The position numbers and the translations under genes are program-made. The notes below the pieces were generated by a model. That model ran no database searches, had not been told where the DNA came from, and saw nothing but the letters and a program-made list of their open reading frames with translations. DNA of 64,000 nucleotides. It comes from [Ruminococcus] torques ATCC 27756 (lineage in GTDB: Bacteria > Bacillota > Clostridia > Lachnospirales > Lachnospiraceae). This document shows positions 7,111-13,689 of the stretch, one piece after another. The DNA is taken from positions 615,772 to 679,771 of the forward strand of contig NZ_DS264345.1 in the NCBI RefSeq assembly GCF_000153925.1, given 5' to 3'. Position 1 is the stretch's first letter. The number at the start of each line of letters is the position of its first letter.

Positions 7111-8241
7111 TTACATTGCCATAAGTGCTTCTGCTACCAAGTCCATTTCTTTTTTCTTTTCTTCCTCGGTAGTATGAACATATAAGTTCATCGTAATTCC
7201 AATATTCGAATGGCCCAGTAACATCTGAAGTGTTTTCGGTTTCATTCCTGCTTCAATACATCTGGTAGCAAAAGTATGTCTCAAGATATGCATCGAAAAT
7301 CTTGGAATTTTTGCTTTATCACAGATTTTAAACAGCGCTGTATCATATGTACTGTTCTTAACTGGTGTCCCTTTTCGACACAGAAACACAAACTCTTCCC
7401 ATTCTGTTGAAATTTCTGAAATCCTCTTATTCTTTTCTTTTTGTTTTTTTAGTATAGCAACCGCTTCTTCTGTTAAGGGTATCGTCCGGTAACCTGATTT
7501 ACTCTTTGGTTCTCCGATACGCCACTCCTTTGCACTGTAACGATATTCCATACTTCTGCGAATCTGAATTGTTTTGGATTTAAAATCGACATCTTCCCAT
7601 TTCAATCCTACCAATTCGCCTGTTCGCAATCCGGTTTGTAGTATAAAACGATACTGATTTTCATAGCTTTGATTTTCTGCATATTGTAAAAATGTTTTTT
7701 GTATGTCTCTTGTTAAAGCAACTTTCTTCTCAGATGGCTTTCCCATATCACTTTTCACAGATTTTTTACAGGGATTGCTACACAAGACTTCATTTTCTTT
7801 TGCATACTCAAACATGTTGTATAATGCAATTCTTGCCTGATAAATTGTAGATGTGCGATACTCCTGATCTGCCATATCATAAAATATTTTCTGACAGTGA
7901 AGTGGTTTCACGTCTGATAGTGGCATCTCCCCAATTACCGGTTTAATATTTTTAATATATCTCTCCGTATAATTGCGAACAGTATTGGAACGGACTGTTT
8001 TCTTTTTTATCCCAATCCAATAATCAAACCATTGATCGACCAGTATATCTGATGGCATTGAAATATCACTGTGTTCATCCACATAAGTCGCATCAGCAAT
8101 CCATGCTCTGCACTCTTGCAGCTTTTTGAATCGTTTATGTTTTCTCTTTCCAAACCGATCTACAAATCTGGCTGAGTATAATCCTGTACTTTCCTGGGAT
8201 ATTCCCTTGCCAAGTTCTTTGCCTTTTAAATCTTTTCCCAT
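7111..8241 (-). CDS. int: Tyrosine recombinase (integrase)
   Basis: This site-specific integrase is of the phage/Tn916 type, 376 residues. The N-terminal arm-binding region (1-60, rich in K/R) is followed by a SAM-like core-binding domain (about 65-150) and the catalytic domain. Catalytic residues are visible: Arg near 205 (TGLRTGE), His-x-x-Arg near 317-320 (HILRHTF), a His in LLGHSN, and the nucleophile Tyr near 355 (MNLYVHTT). The frame is intact and could be active. It reads away from its excisionase and ends 83 bp from the ychF start. The sequence before ychF has two copies of GTGGGCCATT overlapping the 3' end of the gene, which could be recombinase-binding sites. Confidence 0.93.
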   Translation of the reverse strand: MGKDLKGKELGKGISQESTGLYSARFVDRFGKRKHKRFKKLQECRAWIADATYVDEHSDISMPSDILVDQWFDYWIGIKKKTVRSNTVRNYTERYIKNIKPVIGEMPLSDVKPLHCQKIFYDMADQEYRTSTIYQARIALYNMFEYAKENEVLCSNPCKKSVKSDMGKPSEKKVALTRDIQKTFLQYAENQSYENQYRFILQTGLRTGELVGLKWEDVDFKSKTIQIRRSMEYRYSAKEWRIGEPKSKSGYRTIPLTEEAVAILKKQKEKNKRISEISTEWEEFVFLCRKGTPVKNSTYDTALFKICDKAKIPRFSMHILRHTFATRCIEAGMKPKTLQMLLGHSNIGITMNLYVHTTEEEKKKEMDLVAEALMAM

Positions 8242-8345
8242 ATTTCAGCTCCTCTCATAAGAAGCCCTAATACAGTACCTTGTATTATACCATAGCATCT
8301 TATTTTTGTGAATATTCATTTTCATCTCCTGTCATTCATTTATAT

Positions 8346-8546
8346 TTATATTTCCACACTTTCCGAAATGAATTTTTCAAATTCTTTTCTCTTTACAAGT
8401 TTTTTCGTGCCTACGTAAAGCACAAACGGACATCTCGGTTCTTTCAAAAGACTATTTATTCTGTTTTGTCCGATATTACTGTATTCTGCTGCCTCTTCAA
8501 TTGTAAGAGCCACTTTTTCACATATCGCAACATGTTGTTTGCTCAT
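8346..8546 (-). CDS. xis: Excisionase / MerR-like small HTH protein
   Basis: This is a 66-residue basic protein with a winged helix-turn-helix of the excisionase family: LTIEEAAEYSNIGQNRINSL at about 14-33, then a short wing with GTKKLVKRKEFEKFI. In Tn916-like elements such proteins bend DNA at the ends and direct the integrase toward excision. The start has AAGGA upstream. It is 104 bp before the integrase on the same strand, the usual Xis-Int order. A minor alternative role is transcriptional regulation of int. Confidence 0.85.
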   Translation of the reverse strand: MSKQHVAICEKVALTIEEAAEYSNIGQNRINSLLKEPRCPFVLYVGTKKLVKRKEFEKFISESVEI

Positions 8547-8587
8547 AAAATCCTTTCCTTATTGTTTAACGTGCGTAGCATTCACTT

Positions 8588-9403
8588 CTATCCGCAATAC
8601 GCACGATCATTCTTTGTATTCAACAACGTTTTCGCTTTCTCCATTTTCATACTTGCAATCGCTTCTCGTTTACTTGTGCCTCCAACATACATTGGTGTAC
8701 ACATTTCTAAAATACGGTCATAGATACGTCTTTTTTCTAACATGGTCTCGCTTTTTATTTCTTTCAGCGGAAGATTGGTCGTGATGATCAAAGGTCGCCC
8801 CGAACGGATTCTGCGGTCTATGACGCTAAAAATAATTCCTAACGCATATTCTGAATTTCGTTCCACTCCAAGATCATCAATAATCAAAAGCTGATACGAA
8901 GCCAATGCATTGATATATTCCGTTTTGTCTGCCAGCGGAAATATATCATCAATAATGGTATTGAAATTTGTCATCTTTACCGTTACTTCTCGTTTAAGAA
9001 GATCATTGGCAATACACCCGGCAACATAACTTTTCCCGGTACCAACCGGTCCCCAGAATAAACAGCCTATATGATTTCTTTTCATTTTCTCCCAGTTATC
9101 AACATAATTTTTTGCCTTATGCATTACAGCATCTGACGTATCTGCATTTTCAAATGTCCACTCTTCCATTCTGCTCTCGTCAAAACAGATGCTCGTATTT
9201 CTGCTGACTAATTCCCGGTGCTCTTTGTCCTTAAAATATTTTTGTTCTTCTTCATATGCTTTTCTGTCACAGGCACATTGCCTGGAATGTTTCTTCATCC
9301 CCATAAAGCCACCCTTGGGGAAAAATGCTTCTTTCGCTTCCCCGCAGACTTTGCAGTATTGCAAACCATCACTGCCTACACATACGGTATCTTCTTCTCT
9401 CAT
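8588..9403 (-). CDS. DnaC/IstB-like helicase-loader ATPase
   Basis: This AAA+ ATPase is related to DnaC, which loads the replicative helicase. The N-terminal 45 residues hold Cys pairs (CKVCGEAK, then CACD) that suggest a zinc site. Walker A is GPVGTGKS near residue 118, Walker B is LLIIDDLGVE, and an arginine region DRRIRSGRP follows. I chose the ATG at 9403, which overlaps the stop of the upstream gene (TGATG) and has GGAGAG about 10 nt before. A further upstream start at 9430 would overlap that gene by 28 nt. The close coupling with the RepA-like gene says the two act together in element replication. Confidence 0.88.
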   Translation of the reverse strand: MREEDTVCVGSDGLQYCKVCGEAKEAFFPKGGFMGMKKHSRQCACDRKAYEEEQKYFKDKEHRELVSRNTSICFDESRMEEWTFENADTSDAVMHKAKNYVDNWEKMKRNHIGCLFWGPVGTGKSYVAGCIANDLLKREVTVKMTNFNTIIDDIFPLADKTEYINALASYQLLIIDDLGVERNSEYALGIIFSVIDRRIRSGRPLIITTNLPLKEIKSETMLEKRRIYDRILEMCTPMYVGGTSKREAIASMKMEKAKTLLNTKNDRAYCG

Positions 9404-9930
9404 CACAAACTCTCTCCTTCCCCATAGCAATAATTTACTTCATGATATTTATTTCTTTTATATTTCTCAGTTACTTTACTAGGTGCCACATTTCCGACTT
9501 CTGCGCAGCCATTTTTATGGCTAGATGATGGTTGCTTTTCTGACTCTGTTATAGCCATCTTTTCAACCGCCTTATTGTCAACCGGCTGTAAATCTATCTC
9601 ATCAGATGGAATTTTTACATATAAATGATTTGGTTTTGAAAATCCACCGGATCTGCGAACCAATAGTCCCACATCATCCAATTCCTTCAATGCTGTTTTT
9701 ACAGAAGATTTGCATTTGTCGATTTGAACAGACAATTCCTCTATCGGAAATATCAGATAAACATTTCCATACTTATCTATCCAGCTATTCTTTCTCGATA
9801 TCCGTGCCCGGTCATACAAAATCATATAAAGAAATTTTGCAGTTTGAGAAATTCGCAGTTTGAGCAAAAACTTCGGAAACTGGAAGTACTGAAGCATCGG
9901 CTCTGACTCCTTCATGTATTCATATTTCAT
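9403..9930 (-). CDS. RepA_N-like replication initiator
   Basis: This 175-residue protein has an N-terminal winged-helix domain. Residues 14-110 match the RepA_N type: FPKFLL, LRISQTAKFLYMILYDRA, then VYLIFPIEEL and KTALKELDDVGLLVRR. It ends in a variable polar tail. Such initiators are found on theta plasmids and in Tn1549-like integrative elements next to a DnaC-like loader, as here. The 3' end overlaps the dnaC-like gene by one base. Only the N-terminal domain plus a short tail is present. That is the normal size in integrative elements, so I see no sign of truncation. Confidence 0.82.
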   Translation of the reverse strand: MKYEYMKESEPMLQYFQFPKFLLKLRISQTAKFLYMILYDRARISRKNSWIDKYGNVYLIFPIEELSVQIDKCKSSVKTALKELDDVGLLVRRSGGFSKPNHLYVKIPSDEIDLQPVDNKAVEKMAITESEKQPSSSHKNGCAEVGNVAPSKVTEKYKRNKYHEVNYCYGEGESL

Positions 9931-10481: not shown

Positions 10482-11006
10482 TTATATCTCCTTGTATTCC
10501 GGAAGTCTGTCTATTAAATCTTGTGTCTTAAGGCTTACCCCTATAACCGATATTAGTAAATCAAATATATATTTACTACTTTGATAAATATTGGGGTCAT
10601 CTACTATACCTGAAACCTTTTCTACTGTTACCGCATACTTCTCAACAATCCATTCTATTGCTGACTTACCATTTATCACGTACTCATATGCTCTTTCAGG
10701 AATATTGCTTATGGTTATATATTCATTGTATATTATGGTATGAAGAGCTCTTACAGATGCTTCTACTGTCTTATCCCCCATACGGACAATCGCATTTTGA
10801 GTACCTTCCGGGGCATACCAGTTCAGGTTTACCGAATCGTCTCTTTCACCTGGTTGTAAAGTAAGGTATTCGATTGAAACTGCATTGTTTTCCTGTGCTG
10901 CCACCTCCTCTGCTCCCGCTGCAAAGACATCACTTACTGTACTTTGAGCGCATACGATCGAAACAGCTGCTAAAAGCGCCATTGTTTTTCTCCGTTTTAC
11001 TCTCAT
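10482..11006 (-). CDS. Chimeric secreted protein: phosphatase-type N end joined to R-M/helicase C end
   Basis: The 174-residue product begins with a signal peptide (MRVKRRK, hydrophobic to about residue 29). Residues 44-80 look like the start of a fibronectin-like N-terminal domain of secreted purple-acid-phosphatase-type proteins (LTLQPGERDDSVNLNWYAPEG, then AIVRMGDKT). From about residue 91 onward it looks like the last 80 residues of type ISP restriction-modification or SNF2-like helicases (AYEYVINGKSAIEWI, then SGIVDDPN and a closing SVIGVSLKT). These two pieces belong to unrelated proteins, so I read this as an in-frame deletion fusion and a remnant, not a functional enzyme. Both assignments are from memory. 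Confidence 0.5.
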   Translation of the reverse strand: MRVKRRKTMALLAAVSIVCAQSTVSDVFAAGAEEVAAQENNAVSIEYLTLQPGERDDSVNLNWYAPEGTQNAIVRMGDKTVEASVRALHTIIYNEYITISNIPERAYEYVINGKSAIEWIVEKYAVTVEKVSGIVDDPNIYQSSKYIFDLLISVIGVSLKTQDLIDRLPEYKEI

Positions 11007-11146
11007 ATCGTTTCCTCCGTTAACCCATTGAATTCAAGTAACGATAGGATTGTAATGGTCTTTTGTTAAGGTATTTTGTTGCATATGTAAAATAGGAGTT
11101 AAATTTTTCCTTTTACAAAATGACAATGGCATAAACTGTAAGTTGT

Positions 11147-11467
11147 TTATTTCTTCTTTTTCGGTTTTGGAGTTGGCAGTTCATCATACATTGCATGAAA
11201 CAAGCCTGTCAAAAATTCCTTATTATCGACTTCATCTACCAACAACATCTCTTTTGCTCCCTCATAGGGTAATTCACATGAAACTATCGGCATATAACTA
11301 ATTGCTGATTTTACTGGTTTAACAAGTAATCTATCATCATAGATACCGCCTACAATCTTGCCACGATAATAAATAATAAATTCTCCCATCATAGCTCGAT
11401 AAGTAATTTCTTCTAACTCAGATAGCTGCCCTAAAATAAACTCTAAGTATTCCTTGCTTGATGCCAT
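11147..11467 (-). CDS. TfoX/Sxy N-terminal domain protein
   Basis: The 106-residue protein matches the TfoX N-terminal domain: YRAMMGEFIIYYRGKIVGGIYDDRLLVKP at about 23-51, then a closing helix EFLTGLFHAMYDEL and a Lys-rich tail (PKPKKKK). In proteobacteria TfoX activates competence genes. Short Firmicutes relatives have no assigned role, and I infer none. GAGGTGG lies 6 nt before the ATG. Repeat copy A lies just upstream. It is the last gene of the cassette-like row. Confidence 0.85.
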   Translation of the reverse strand: MASSKEYLEFILGQLSELEEITYRAMMGEFIIYYRGKIVGGIYDDRLLVKPVKSAISYMPIVSCELPYEGAKEMLLVDEVDNKEFLTGLFHAMYDELPTPKPKKKK

Positions 11468-11485
11468 ATTTCCACCTCAAATTCT

Positions 11486-11525
11486 GATTTGTTTAACTCT
11501 TTTCATATTAACAAACTGAAAGTTT
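11486..11525 (-). repeat. Inter-gene repeat, copy A
   Basis: GATTTGTTTAACTC with CATATTAACAAACTGA in the same block. It has inverted arms TTTGTTAA and TTAAACAAA on the minus strand with one unpaired base. It touches the stop of the 55-aa gene. Confidence 0.6.
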
Positions 11526-11691
11526 ATTTTTTAGATTTATCTTTGAAAAAGCCGATTAAAATTAAAGCAATACCGAGAATTGCTACCGGAATATAAATAA
11601 TATTAGGTATCTGATAAACAAATCTATCAATTCCAGACATAACAATATAAATAATACTTCCCACACTGATTAAAATGCTTTTATCTTTCAT
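11524..11691 (-). CDS. Small membrane protein (55 aa)
   Basis: ATG at 11691 has AAAGGAG 8 nt upstream. The 55-residue product has two hydrophobic segments (about 5-19 and 30-48) joined by a short polar turn with IDRFVYQIPN, and a basic end FFKDKSKK. I do not recognise the family. Strong ribosome site, two clean membrane helices and position in the same-strand row argue that it is real. It is the fifth gene of the array, between repeat copies E and A. Confidence 0.6.
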   Translation of the reverse strand: MKDKSILISVGSIIYIVMSGIDRFVYQIPNIIYIPVAILGIALILIGFFKDKSKK

Positions 11692-11705
11692 AGTTGGTCT
11701 CCTTT

Positions 11706-11745
11706 GTAACTTACAGTTTCCCGGTTCATCAAACTGACTTTTATT
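11706..11745 (-). repeat. Inter-gene repeat, copy E (diverged)
   Basis: Best matched part is TCATCAAACTGACTTTTATT, against copy A's TTAACAAACTGAAAGTTTATT-like end. The other half is diverged. It lies between the DUF6483-like gene and the 55-aa gene. Confidence 0.4.
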
Positions 11746-11787
11746 TGTGTCTTACTTTTAAATCCGACTTTAATTACTATTTCTACA

Positions 11788-12192
11788 TTATTCATGACCT
11801 TTAACCAAATAAAGTAAATCAGCATATCCTGACTGCTTGAGTAATTGTTCAAACCCAGAAAACACTTCTTCTTTTGTATAATTATTGCTCTCTAAAAACT
11901 CACTGTCTTTTTCGCTAAGGTGCTGATAAAAAAGAGCGGCAGCTATTACCTCATCTCTGTTGGAATAATCAATGCCATCTAAAAGTATATTCTCAGCTTC
12001 ATTGATTTGTCCTACATCAATCATATCCAGAAAATCTTTCAAATTTTTTCCAGATACTTCATACTTGTTTTCTTTTTCTAATTCAACAGAAACATACTTT
12101 TTCCCAAATGCTAAAGAAAATAATACTCTTACCATTTCTTTTATCATTCGCATAATGTAATCTTTTTCATCTGTAAAATTCAATGTTTTCAT
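11788..12192 (-). CDS. DUF6483-like protein
   Basis: The product from ATG 12192 is a 134-residue helical soluble protein: DYIMRMIKEMVRVLFSLAFGKKY near the N end, then YEVSGKNLKDFLDMIDVGQINEAENILL and a C-terminal helix pair. It resembles DUF6483, a family common in gut Clostridia with no known function. A GTG at 12219 would extend it by 9 residues but lies inside repeat copy B, so I prefer 12192. That start has a G-run directly in front, closer than usual. No catalytic motif is seen. Confidence 0.65.
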   Translation of the reverse strand: MKTLNFTDEKDYIMRMIKEMVRVLFSLAFGKKYVSVELEKENKYEVSGKNLKDFLDMIDVGQINEAENILLDGIDYSNRDEVIAAALFYQHLSEKDSEFLESNNYTKEEVFSGFEQLLKQSGYADLLYLVKGHE

Positions 12193-12198
12193 CCCCCC

Positions 12199-12237
12199 GA
12201 TTTGCTTAACTCTTTTCACCTCAACAAACTGAGCGTT
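12199..12237 (-). repeat. Inter-gene repeat, copy B
   Basis: GATTTGCTTAACTCTTTTCA followed by a CAACAAACTGAGCGTT end. This is the closest match to copy A (about 32 of 39 positions). It lies 17 nt after the AAA gene stop. Confidence 0.6.
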
Positions 12238-12254
12238 ATCGCTTTCTTTATTAT

Positions 12255-12971
12255 CTAATCTGTTAGCAATCTATTCAGCAACATCTGCCTATTGTTTATA
12301 AACATCTCTGTTATCTGATAACTTTCTGTCTCTTCATATTCGCATAAATGTATGCTTCCATTATCAAAACAATAAATATCTGCATCCGGTATACCTAACA
12401 GAATGGGCGAATGTGTAACTATAAAAAACTGTGCCCCTTCCTTCGCAAATCGGTATATTTGCATTAACAATGTAAGCTGTCTCTGAGGTGATAATGCAGC
12501 TTCTGGTTCGTCAAAAAGATACAGGCCGTTTGGATGTAAATTATCCTGAGCTAATGCAAGGAAGCTCTCTCCATGTGACTTTTCATGATACTTTGCAGAG
12601 GGATGCTTCAGATCTGCATAATTTTCTTCCTGCGTGGCAACATTATAAAAACTTTCGGCTCTAAGAAAATATCCCCACTTTTCCTTCCGGTAGCCTTTTG
12701 AAATTTTTATTGCATCACATAATTCTGAATGCGTATCATGAGTAGAAAAAACATAATTCTTTGTTCCACCCTCAGGATTAAAACCATGTGCTATAGCAAT
12801 CGCCTCCAACAAAGTTGATTTACCACTGCCATTTTCTCCGACAAAAAAGGTAATTGATTTATTGAAATCAAGTTTTTCAACTCCATTAAAAGCTTCTATT
12901 TCTTTTAAATAACTATCATTATCAATTCTATTCCAATCAAATATTACTCCTTGTATGAATTGATCATTCAT
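12255..12971 (-). CDS. RecF/ABC-type AAA ATPase
   Basis: This soluble P-loop ATPase of the AAA_23/COG3910 kind has 238 residues from ATG 12971. Walker A is FVGENGSGKST near 41-51, an ABC-like signature region is near SHGESFLAL (about 135), Walker B is LYLFDEPEAALS near 153, and the switch His is in IVTHSPILL near 186. There is no coiled-coil insert and no nuclease domain. Such stand-alone ATPases occur on mobile islands, some in defence modules, but no partner nuclease is adjacent here. I chose ATG 12971, with GGTG 8 nt before, over a TTG at 12992. Confidence 0.85.
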   Translation of the reverse strand: MNDQFIQGVIFDWNRIDNDSYLKEIEAFNGVEKLDFNKSITFFVGENGSGKSTLLEAIAIAHGFNPEGGTKNYVFSTHDTHSELCDAIKISKGYRKEKWGYFLRAESFYNVATQEENYADLKHPSAKYHEKSHGESFLALAQDNLHPNGLYLFDEPEAALSPQRQLTLLMQIYRFAKEGAQFFIVTHSPILLGIPDADIYCFDNGSIHLCEYEETESYQITEMFINNRQMLLNRLLTD

Positions 12972-12994
12972 CAAATCACCGCTTAACTCCAAAC

Positions 12995-13034
12995 CTATTG
13001 ATATAGCTCTTTTCGTCTCAACAAATTTGAATTC
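12995..13034 (-). repeat. Inter-gene repeat, copy C
   Basis: The core GCTCTTTTCGTCTCAACAAA matches copies A and B. The distal arm is diverged. It touches the stop codon of the 80-aa gene. Confidence 0.5.
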
Positions 13035-13275
13035 ACATAAATCTACTTATCAAATTATATGCAGTGACTACATAGACAAAAATTGCTACACCTGCAAATA
13101 TCATAGCGTCTTTCTTTGCACCTTTATCATAACATTCTTTTGCACTCGTCAAAAAGGTTAATCCCATAAAAACAAACATAAGAGGCAATGTTATATCAGT
13201 AGACACTATGTTTATAAGTCCAAGAGAACCGAAAACAATCGTTAAAACACTAAAGATTGCTTTCAAAACACGCAT
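13033..13275 (-). CDS. DUF3953-like small membrane protein (80 aa)
   Basis: The 80-residue protein has three hydrophobic segments at about 5-24, 29-44 and 58-75. LPLMFVFMGLTFLTSAKECYDKGAKKDA in the middle resembles DUF3953 small membrane proteins of Firmicutes. AAAGGAGG lies 7 nt before the ATG. Function is unknown. It is the second gene of the array, between copies D and C. Confidence 0.65.
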   Translation of the reverse strand: MRVLKAIFSVLTIVFGSLGLINIVSTDITLPLMFVFMGLTFLTSAKECYDKGAKKDAMIFAGVAIFVYVVTAYNLISRFM

Positions 13276-13300
13276 ACATATTCCTCCTTTAGCAAATTCA

Positions 13301-13340
13301 AATTTTACTTAACCTTTTTTTATCTTAACAACCTAAGATT
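13301..13340 (-). repeat. Inter-gene repeat, copy D
   Basis: TTACTTAACC followed by a T-tract and TCTTAACAACCTAAGATT, with the same block order as copies A and B but more substitutions. Confidence 0.45.
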
Positions 13341-13369
13341 GATCGATATACTTGTTCATCTTTTTCATC

Positions 13370-13513
13370 TCAATCTCTATGTCCTATTAGCTTACAAATC
13401 ATTCTTTTAATTCTTACAACAATTCCTCCAACTCCTCCCAGCCTTGATAATAAAATGCCGAGAGCAAAAAATATCACTATAACAGGAACCATGTCCAAAT
13501 AATTTTCTCCCAT
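13370..13513 (-). CDS. Small membrane protein (47 aa)
   Basis: ATG at 13513 has AAAGGAG 8 nt upstream. The 47 residues hold one hydrophobic helix (about 6-22), a Gly-rich turn (GGVGGI) and a basic tail (RIKRMICKLIGHRD). It is the promoter-proximal gene of the row. I do not recognise the family. Confidence 0.55.
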   Translation of the reverse strand: MGENYLDMVPVIVIFFALGILLSRLGGVGGIVVRIKRMICKLIGHRD

Positions 13514-13554
13514 AGTCGATCTCCTTTACAGATTCTAATGTGTTTTTTCAGTAT

Positions 13555-13583
13555 ACTATAATTATAATCATTCTATCAGACAA
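13555..13583 (-). promoter_or_regulatory. Promoter of the cassette-like row
   Basis: On the minus strand: TTGTCT (13578-13583), 17-bp spacer, TATAGT (13555-13560), 42 bp before the first gene. I see no good promoter in the downstream gaps, so it probably drives the whole row. Confidence 0.55.
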
Positions 13584-13657
13584 AAGCTTTTATTTCTACG
13601 GAATTTTCTGCAAAGCATATATCTACGTATTGTTAAACTGTATCATAGAATATAACT

Positions 13658-13689
13658 AAAAGGTAACCTGCCTCAGCAAGTTACCTTTT
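13658..13689. terminator. Bidirectional terminator after thiN
   Basis: AAAAGGTAAC (13658-13667) and GTTACCTTTT (13680-13689) form a stem with T-runs on both sides. It ends the murE-thiN operon and isolates the accessory island. Between here and thiN (13690-13828) I see nothing else. Confidence 0.75.

What the first reader, a model, noticed from the sequence alone, without database searches (positions are those of the whole stretch)
11090..13600. A possible integron-like gene-cassette array without a visible integron integrase
Six unrelated short genes on one strand (47 aa, 80 aa, AAA ATPase, DUF6483-like, 55 aa, TfoX-like) are separated by five related 40-nt repeats (A 11486-11525, E 11706-11745, B 12199-12237, C 12995-13034, D 13301-13340). 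Each repeat follows a stop and precedes the next ribosome site. A and B agree at about 32 of 39 positions. On the minus strand the repeat has imperfect inverted arms (TTTG-TTRA and TTAARCAAA) with one unpaired base in one arm, the kind of asymmetry seen in attC folds. A single promoter lies at 13555-13583. This suggests a mobile cassette system, perhaps a new site class served by a distant recombinase.
Basis: partly seen in the sequence, partly recalled or inferred. Interest (0 to 1): 0.78.

Follow-up and report, generated by a model that had tools for sequence, protein, structure and literature searches.

The report
Integron-like gene cassettes in gut Firmicutes
The repeats between these six small genes belong to a class of short, near-palindromic DNA sites at which single genes, some of them antibiotic-resistance genes, appear to be swapped in and out of mobile elements of gut bacteria, probably by a tyrosine recombinase that is not the known integron enzyme.

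Summary
The array is real. Repeats A-D are far beyond chance; E is weak. The same site class lies between or beside unrelated small genes in Enterocloster, Eubacterium UBA3279, Vescimonas, Enterococcus faecalis and Campylobacter. A half-site pattern hits 46 places in 32 of 299 Lachnospiraceae genomes, against 1 place for the reversed pattern. Consensus: AAATTCC-AG-TTTGT, a loop, ACAAA-TC-GGAATTT. Different genes occupy the same context, and one gene occurs in several contexts, with identity switching at the outer edges of the site in most pairs I could read. A 431-aa tyrosine recombinase, unlike IntI, is followed by a leader that ends at such a box 112-129 nt after the stop in 18 of 19 distinct places, beyond which sequences mostly differ. 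The window's own genome carries an 81% identical homolog; beyond its leader lies a flank 80% identical over 104 nt to the flank bounding the window array. Against a true integron: no IntI over cut-off, no attC consensus, no fold better than shuffles, no arm covariation. It works like an integron but is not one by these tests. Recombinase action is inferred, not shown.

The parts
13543..13645 (.). right flank of the array, with the promoter-like sequence; homologous to the flank beside the recombinase leader and half-site on contig C40 of the same genome
   Evidence: blastn 104 nt, 79.8% identity, E 1.3e-19; aligned
13555..13583 (-). promoter-like sequence TTGTCT-17-TATAGT reading into the array
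   Evidence: 9 of 12; consensus match only
13530..13541 (-). possible right half-site before the first gene (ACATTAGAATCT)
   Evidence: 8 of 12 to AAATCGGAATTT; weak, 379 minus-strand positions score 8
13370..13513 (-). gene 1, 47 aa, hydrophobic by eye
   Evidence: ORF; no Pfam match over cut-off
13299..13340 (-). site D
   Evidence: (3 mismatches)
13033..13275 (-). gene 2, 80 aa, hydrophobic by eye
   Evidence: no Pfam match over cut-off
12994..13034 (-). site C
   Evidence: 1 mismatch; left half 11/14
12255..12971 (-). gene 3, AAA ATPase, 238 aa
   Evidence: Pfam AAA_21 1.8e-18
12195..12237 (-). site B
   Evidence: 0 mismatches; left half 10/14, no good right half
11788..12192 (-). gene 4, DUF6483, 134 aa
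   Evidence: Pfam 1.3e-33
11706..11745 (-). site E, weak
   Evidence: left half 10/14; not found with up to 3 mismatches
11524..11691 (-). gene 5, 55 aa, hydrophobic by eye
   Evidence: no Pfam match over cut-off
11475..11526 (-). site A, the best copy: left half 12/14, right half 11/12
11147..11467 (-). gene 6, TfoX-like, 106 aa
   Evidence: Pfam TfoX_N 7.7e-07, 0.5 bit under cut-off
11131..11144 (-). terminal left half-site AACTTACAGTTTAT directly after the stop of the last gene
   Evidence: 11/14
7111..9930 (-). neighbouring mobile-element genes: tyrosine integrase (7111-8241), excisionase-like by eye (8346-8546), IstB/DnaC-like ATPase (8588-9406), RepA_N (9403-9930); this integrase is not the candidate cassette recombinase

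Best explanation
The window holds a cassette array of an integron-like system of Firmicutes mobile elements. SHOWN by comparison: genes lie between copies of a near-palindromic site (R'' AAATTCC, L'' AGTTTGT, loop of about 9-26 nt, L' ACAAA, R' TCGGAATTT). First genes often have only the right half, behind a TATAAT-like box; last genes end with the left half. Genes are exchanged with breakpoints that, where they can be placed, mostly fall in the outermost ~5 bp of either arm (AAATT or AATTT). INFERRED: a 431-aa tyrosine recombinase (here called int430) binds arm-type repeats (TTTCCCTT / AAGGGAAA) in a leader behind its own gene and joins the end of that leader to a site edge. The leader end would be the analogue of attI, and the sites the analogue of attC. 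Because the site is nearly symmetric, either edge can serve as the crossover, so the gene between two edges is the mobile unit. The promoter would lie in the acceptor and the cassettes would be promoterless. In this genome int430 sits on another contig, in a MobQ mobilizable element, and could act in trans on the window array.
For: Sites with other genes: L024 (172-, 115- and 153-aa genes), L034, L091 CPCC-site-170 aa, L122 GNAT-site-kinase-like-site-65 aa/APH, L123 and L124. Same acceptor, different cargo: the DUF3847/mobQ slot (by eye, right half at the left border in 10 of 14 rows, left half at the right border in 17 of 32 rows; some rows are near-duplicates), and Campylobacter tet(O) plasmids, where the same -10 box and right half are followed by catA13, a GNAT gene or a kinase start in 7 of 8 records opened, of 26 that share the flank. 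Same gene, different context: a GNAT gene with identical last 40 nt and then different half-sites (L122, L131, L133); a PepE-like 200-aa gene in 4 contexts, once directly behind an int430 leader. Abundance: 46 places against 1 control place. Recombinase: box at 112-129 nt after the stop in 18 of 19 distinct places. Homolog 81% identical in the own genome. Shared flank. int430 in at least 5 of 10 site-rich genomes against 12 of 130, Fisher p 0.0025.
Against: No recombination was observed. Arms do not covary and do not fold well. Co-occurrence is partly circular, since each int430 brings its own site; only 3 of the 12 int430 genomes are among the 32 site-positive genomes. Slots also lie in elements whose recombinase reads by eye as a large serine recombinase (L091, L027), and G176, with such slots, has no int430 at E 1e-60. 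One int430 homolog (L217) has no clear box (0.67), and boxes of 0.58-0.93 also occur 200-400 nt after the stop; the 0.93 is the next half-site in L199. Two int430 copies (L203, L214) share the same sequence beyond the box. In one same-gene pair (L136, L156) identity runs 6 nt into the loop instead of ending at the edge. In L128 the left half is missing between two genes. The int430 leader is not found in the window (best hit E 0.078). Repeat E and the first-gene right half are weak. That cassettes lack promoters was not tested. The exact mobile unit is not settled.
Confidence: 0.6

Rival explanations
1. The boxes are conserved borders of a cargo slot (5' leader and 3' trailer), and genes are swapped by general homologous or short-homology recombination within the 12-20 bp borders, without a dedicated recombinase.
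For: Breakpoints lie inside conserved boxes, as double crossovers would give. In one same-gene pair identity runs past the left half into the loop (L136/L156). Slots occur in elements without visible int430. No covariation.
Against: The boxes are shorter than usual RecA substrates (recalled). Where placeable, breakpoints sit mostly at the outer 5 bp: most same-left pairs that I could read differ from position 6-7 of the left half. A box stands at a nearly fixed distance behind one recombinase family. The two borders are inverted repeats of each other, which a leader and a trailer need not be.
Confidence: 0.2
2. int430 is an ordinary integrase of mobilizable elements and the site is simply its attachment core; arrays are accretions of neighbouring integrations and remnants, with no specialised gene-capture function.
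For: int430 sits at the end of an element with excisionase-like and DUF3847-like genes (both by eye) and a MobQ-like relaxase (147 bits, under the 200-bit cut-off). The ~4.8-kb stretch on C40 that holds it lies between two sites. Tn1549 Int is the nearest solved structure.
Against: Units between sites are often single genes in one orientation (two-gene and three-gene units also occur, e.g. 65 aa/APH and MarR-like plus two others); the same gene recurs in several contexts; acceptors carry a -10-like box next to the half-site.
Confidence: 0.15
3. Each gene is a small transposon-like unit whose terminal inverted repeats are the two half-sites.
For: Right half GACAAATCGGAATTT and left half AAATTCCAGTTTGTC are inverted repeats flanking each gene (sequences).
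Against: In the pairs that I could read, half-sites mostly stay with the context, not with the gene. Target duplications were not looked for.
Confidence: 0.03
4. The repeat is an RNA regulatory element (leader or terminator) of small genes.
For: It lies between stop codon and Shine-Dalgarno stretch (by eye).
Against: Rfam hits in the region are all below gathering scores (5 hits); no stable fold, tested as DNA only; the left half also ends arrays.
Confidence: 0.02

Closest known systems
Integrons and CALIN (clusters of attC sites lacking an integrase)
   Same: Arrays of small genes in one orientation, separated by near-palindromic sites; a promoter-like box in the acceptor; a tyrosine recombinase gene beside a primary site; cargo includes resistance genes; a group II intron end stands at the half-site of one slot, and group IIC introns are known from integrons (abstract of PMC7923331 in the listing).
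   Different: No IntI over cut-off in the own or 10 site-rich genomes. Outer boxes AAATTCC/GGAATTT instead of RYYYAAC/GTTRRRY (attC consensus recalled). Breakpoints at both edges. No attC-like fold or covariation. Found mainly in Firmicutes, where integrons are described as extremely rare (passages of PMC9024848).
Tn916/Tn1549-type integrases of conjugative and mobilizable elements
   Same: int430 is a Phage_integrase-family protein (3.2e-26); nearest solved chains are Tn1549 Int (6emy, named 'Int protein'; Tn1549 recalled; 7.9e-12 over about 50 C-terminal aa); leader with repeated arm-like motifs.
   Different: Known members move one whole element (recalled); here the site recurs between small genes in arrays and cargo slots.
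p-dif (XerC/XerD) gene modules of Acinetobacter plasmids (recalled)
   Same: Genes bounded by short inverted sites and exchanged as modules.
   Different: Sites are not dif-like by eye; the linked recombinase scores far below the XerC and XerD cut-offs (67 and 68 bits against 335 and 330).
Tn4451-like and MobQ mobilizable elements with cargo genes
   Same: Several slots lie in such elements (TnpV, DUF3847 and MobQ as annotated in L091; by eye in L027 and C40).
   Different: In the passages of a review on these elements that I saw (PMC5704250), cargo is described as variable, without mention of such a site.

Membership tests
Integron | IntI integrase gene (TIGR02249 over cut-off) in the genome | tested here: not met
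   0 of 1 (own) and 0 of 10 site-rich genomes
Integron | attC boxes RYYYAAC ... GTTRRRY (recalled consensus) | tested here: not met
   by eye on the 34 sites listed: outer boxes resemble AAATTCC...GGAATTT (these sites were selected by that consensus)
Integron | attC folds as single-stranded hairpin with conserved pairing | tested here: not met
   z -1.63 to +0.13 for 10 strands; covariation p 0.33, n = 34, including some sites read on both strands and a few that may be chance
Integron | array of genes in one orientation separated by related sites | tested here: met
   window; L024, L091, L122
Integron | cassettes lack their own promoters | not tested
   promoter-like matches occur inside the window array at near-chance numbers
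Integron | recombinase gene next to a primary site | tested here: met
   not IntI but int430: 18 of 19 distinct places
Integron | crossover at one defined edge of the site | tested here: not met
   breakpoints at both edges
Integron | cassettes excised as circles | not testable with these tools
   needs cells or reads
Tyrosine recombinase (int430) | Phage_integrase catalytic domain | tested here: met
   Pfam 92.6 bits against cut-off 27.1
p-dif module | 28-bp XerC/XerD sites | not tested
   only compared by eye from memory
Transposon with terminal inverted repeats | repeats travel with the unit | tested here: not met
   half-sites mostly follow the context in the pairs read (output was cut)

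The most novel reading that the evidence does not exclude
Firmicutes have their own, independently evolved counterpart of the integron: a cassette-capture platform built on a Tn1549-like tyrosine recombinase, with a leader as attI and symmetric ~36-50 nt sites usable from either edge, carried mainly by mobilizable elements of gut bacteria and feeding small gene cassettes, including chloramphenicol and aminoglycoside resistance genes, into Enterococcus and Campylobacter plasmids.
Probability: 0.5. Interest if true: 0.93.

Novelty: new variant of a known kind. Interest (0 to 1): 0.86.

Why it matters
Integrons are described as extremely rare in Firmicutes, for unclear reasons (PMC9024848 passages), although this phylum exchanges resistance genes heavily (recalled). 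A native cassette system would answer part of that puzzle. It would also explain how unrelated small genes (catA13, GNAT and aminoglycoside phosphotransferase as annotated; ABC-F, dCTP-deaminase-like and PepE-like by eye or weak match) come to stand beside the same site in different elements. The hypothesis is directly testable: the site, the recombinase and the acceptor are named.

Tried and rejected
Rejected: chance. Rejected: the hit at G000:C39:171618 as a cassette site; it lies in what reads by eye as an AraC-type gene. Genus search with 3 mismatches was at the level of the reversed control. Of 12 exact genome-contig hits I judged 2 genuine by context (L034, L036); the other 10 lie inside ORFs or at no clear gene junction. 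The sequence-only model R1 gave hits in 9 of 397 genomes, of which I judged L049 and L052 genuine. Viral contigs: 0 hits twice. DNA searches of plasmids and phages with single sites were noise; one half-site query gave one useful hit among 105 records; the consensus probe gave more. Pattern one search was mostly background (41 places listed; 26 loci read). Considered and dropped: oriT/relaxase-driven exchange (slots lie beside mobQ, but the window array does not), RNA element, a coding origin of the left half (it reads as xFQFVEMK, but after stop codons in another frame). Covariation of the arms was tested and not found. The 5' intron end in L208 is my reading; Rfam did not confirm it.

Literature: eight answered full-text searches returned listings in which I saw no description of this site or recombinase. 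I read passages of PMC9024848, PMC8618304 and PMC5704250 only; the library lacks most subscription papers.

Full report
OBSERVATION. The window is contig C39:615772-679771 of a 2.74-Mb genome. It is in the same family as handle G176, whose 34,019-base contig corresponds to NZ_BLTJ01000019 of Enterocloster alcoholdehydrogenati; that makes it Lachnospiraceae (family name recalled). Six minus-strand ORFs lie at 11147-13513, with repeats A, E, B, C and D between them. A, B, C and D are found with up to 3 mismatches: 4 matches against 0.02 expected. E is weak. G+C is 0.336-0.339 at 10-14 kb, against 0.37-0.47 in the other 2-kb steps.

THE REPEAT ELSEWHERE. A search of 397 family genomes found one further copy, in G176: a different array in which genes of 172, 115 and 153 aa are separated by two sites inside a mobilizable element. 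A scan of genome contigs (one genome for each of 84,980 species) gave 12 hits, of which I accept two by context: that record and Eubacterium UBA3279, where one site stands before a gene that reads by eye as a dCTP deaminase. From a half-site in G062 behind a gene that reads by eye as ABC-F I reached Vescimonas fastidiosa pMM35_01. There, between DUF3847 and mobQ, lies CPCC gene - site - 170-aa gene - left half-site. G176 has the same backbone with another gene at the same point.

THE SITE. From many borders the consensus is AAATTCCAGTTTGT, a loop, ACAAATCGGAATTT, that is, two arms of about 14 nt with a 2-nt mismatch. In many sites the loop between the scored boxes is 9-10 nt; in the window's site A it is 20 nt. 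The window sites are therefore diverged members. First genes often carry only the right half, behind a TATAAT-like box; last genes end with the left half. By eye the right half is at the left border in 10 of 14 rows, and the left half at the right border in 17 of 32 rows; several rows are near-duplicates. In the window the last gene is followed directly by a left half (11/14); the right half before the first gene is weak (8/12).

ABUNDANCE. The strict left-half pattern with up to 1 mismatch gives 46 places in 32 of 299 Lachnospiraceae genomes, and 1 place for the reversed control. Of 30 loci read, 16 lie within -3 to 70 nt of the stop of an ORF of at least 45 aa and 5 inside ORFs; a few may count in both.

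EXCHANGE. Twenty-six Campylobacter plasmid records share the flank behind tet(O). Of 8 opened, 7 have the same 20-nt right half, followed by catA13 (L124), a GNAT gene (L128) or a kinase start (L123, L127, L129, L132, L134); in L130 it is lost. The same or a closely similar GNAT gene stands in an E. faecalis plasmid in a DUF3847 slot (L122), in Kurthia (L131) and in another C. coli plasmid (L133). The last 40 nt before the site are identical in L122, L131 and L133, while the half-sites differ from position 6 or 7 onward. Five loci share one complete site plus a gene that reads by eye as MarR; to the left three have different genes (L174, L178, L180) and two the int430 leader (L141, L158). A PepE-like 200-aa gene (71 bits, under the 156-bit cut-off) occurs in four contexts with borders at the boxes. 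Breakpoints thus lie mostly in the outer ~5 bp of either arm. Exceptions: in L136/L156 identity runs 6 nt into the loop, and in L128 the left half is missing between two genes. The output was cut, so the pairs were not counted.

RECOMBINASE. In L141, L158 and L179 the sequence to the left of the site is a tyrosine recombinase gene with its leader. Homologs were found in 12 of 130 family genomes; those are 64-100% identical, one of them (L219) only a 139-aa fragment and one (L211) with an internal stop. In 18 of 19 distinct places (14 and 5 further) the leader, with TTTCCCTT/AAGGGAAA repeats, ends 112-129 nt after the stop at a box scoring at least 0.79; L217 is the exception with 0.67. Beyond the box the sequences mostly differ; L203 and L214 share the same one. 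Boxes of 0.58-0.93 also occur at 200-400 nt (the 0.93 is the next half-site in L199), so the score alone is not the evidence; the coincidence with the end of leader conservation is. In L221 the PepE-like gene follows that box directly. Pfam: Phage_integrase. Nearest solved chains: 6emy and kin (Tn1549 Int). NCBIfam XerA/C/D and integron models match far below cut-off.

THE OWN GENOME. It holds an 81% identical homolog on C40, in an element with HTH, excisionase-like and DUF3847-like genes (by eye; NCBIfam gave no family for the last) and a MobQ-like relaxase (147 bits, under its 200-bit cut-off), and a site followed by genes that read by eye as MarR and two radical-SAM proteins. Its leader ends at ACAAATCCCGATTT. 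Beyond it lies a flank homologous to window 13543-13645 (104 nt, 79.8%). My reading is that the flank that bounds the window array is the same kind of acceptor that the recombinase element occupies on C40. The leader itself is not in the window. The window's own integrase (7111-8241) is only 34% identical over about 100 aa to int430 and shows no box behind it by eye.

WHAT SPEAKS AGAINST. No IntI over cut-off. The attC consensus is absent. The sites fold like shuffles, and the arms do not covary (p 0.33). Co-occurrence of int430 and sites: at least 5 of 10 site-rich genomes (the others were not all searched with the protein) against 12 of 130, p 0.0025, but this is partly circular. Among the 12 int430 genomes only G065, G085 and G175 are also in the site list. 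Several slots are in elements with what reads as a serine recombinase. Recombination itself was not observed.

VERDICT. A mobile gene-cassette system is well supported by comparison. The recombinase assignment is a strong lead. It works like an integron but fails integron membership on three tested features: integrase, box consensus, and fold with covariation. It also differs in showing breakpoints at both edges of the site.

Noticed in passing
window 10482-11006: 174-aa ORF with a signal-peptide-like start (by eye) joined to a Type ISP restriction-enzyme C-terminal domain (2.3e-19): looks like a chimera or remnant.
   Followed up: no
window 8613-8953 and G000:C40 (L202:4558-4898): 95% identical stretch of the IstB/DnaC-like gene in two integrated elements of the same genome.
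   Followed up: partly
L098 (1675-1749) and L208: A group II intron 3' end (Rfam RF00029, 55.7 bits) stands exactly where the left half-site lies in the mobQ slot of L091; L208 shows what may be an intron 5' end inside the left half behind an int430 leader (not confirmed by Rfam).
   Followed up: partly
L124:6350-7026: catA13 of a Campylobacter jejuni plasmid lies between a right and a left half-site, like a single cassette.
   Followed up: partly
L093/L136: An ABC-F-like gene (by eye), half-site copies and a small kinase-like gene share the DUF3847/mobQ slot in G062 and G195 (identical over 1,600 bases); G181 looks the same at the border.
   Followed up: partly
L113, L117, L118, L121: In distant MobQ elements the left half-site runs directly into the conserved stretch before mobQ (AACTAAATACCCGCCG-like), which could be the oriT region.
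   Followed up: no
window 13658-13689: Terminator-like stem of 14 pairs just outside the array flank.
   Followed up: no
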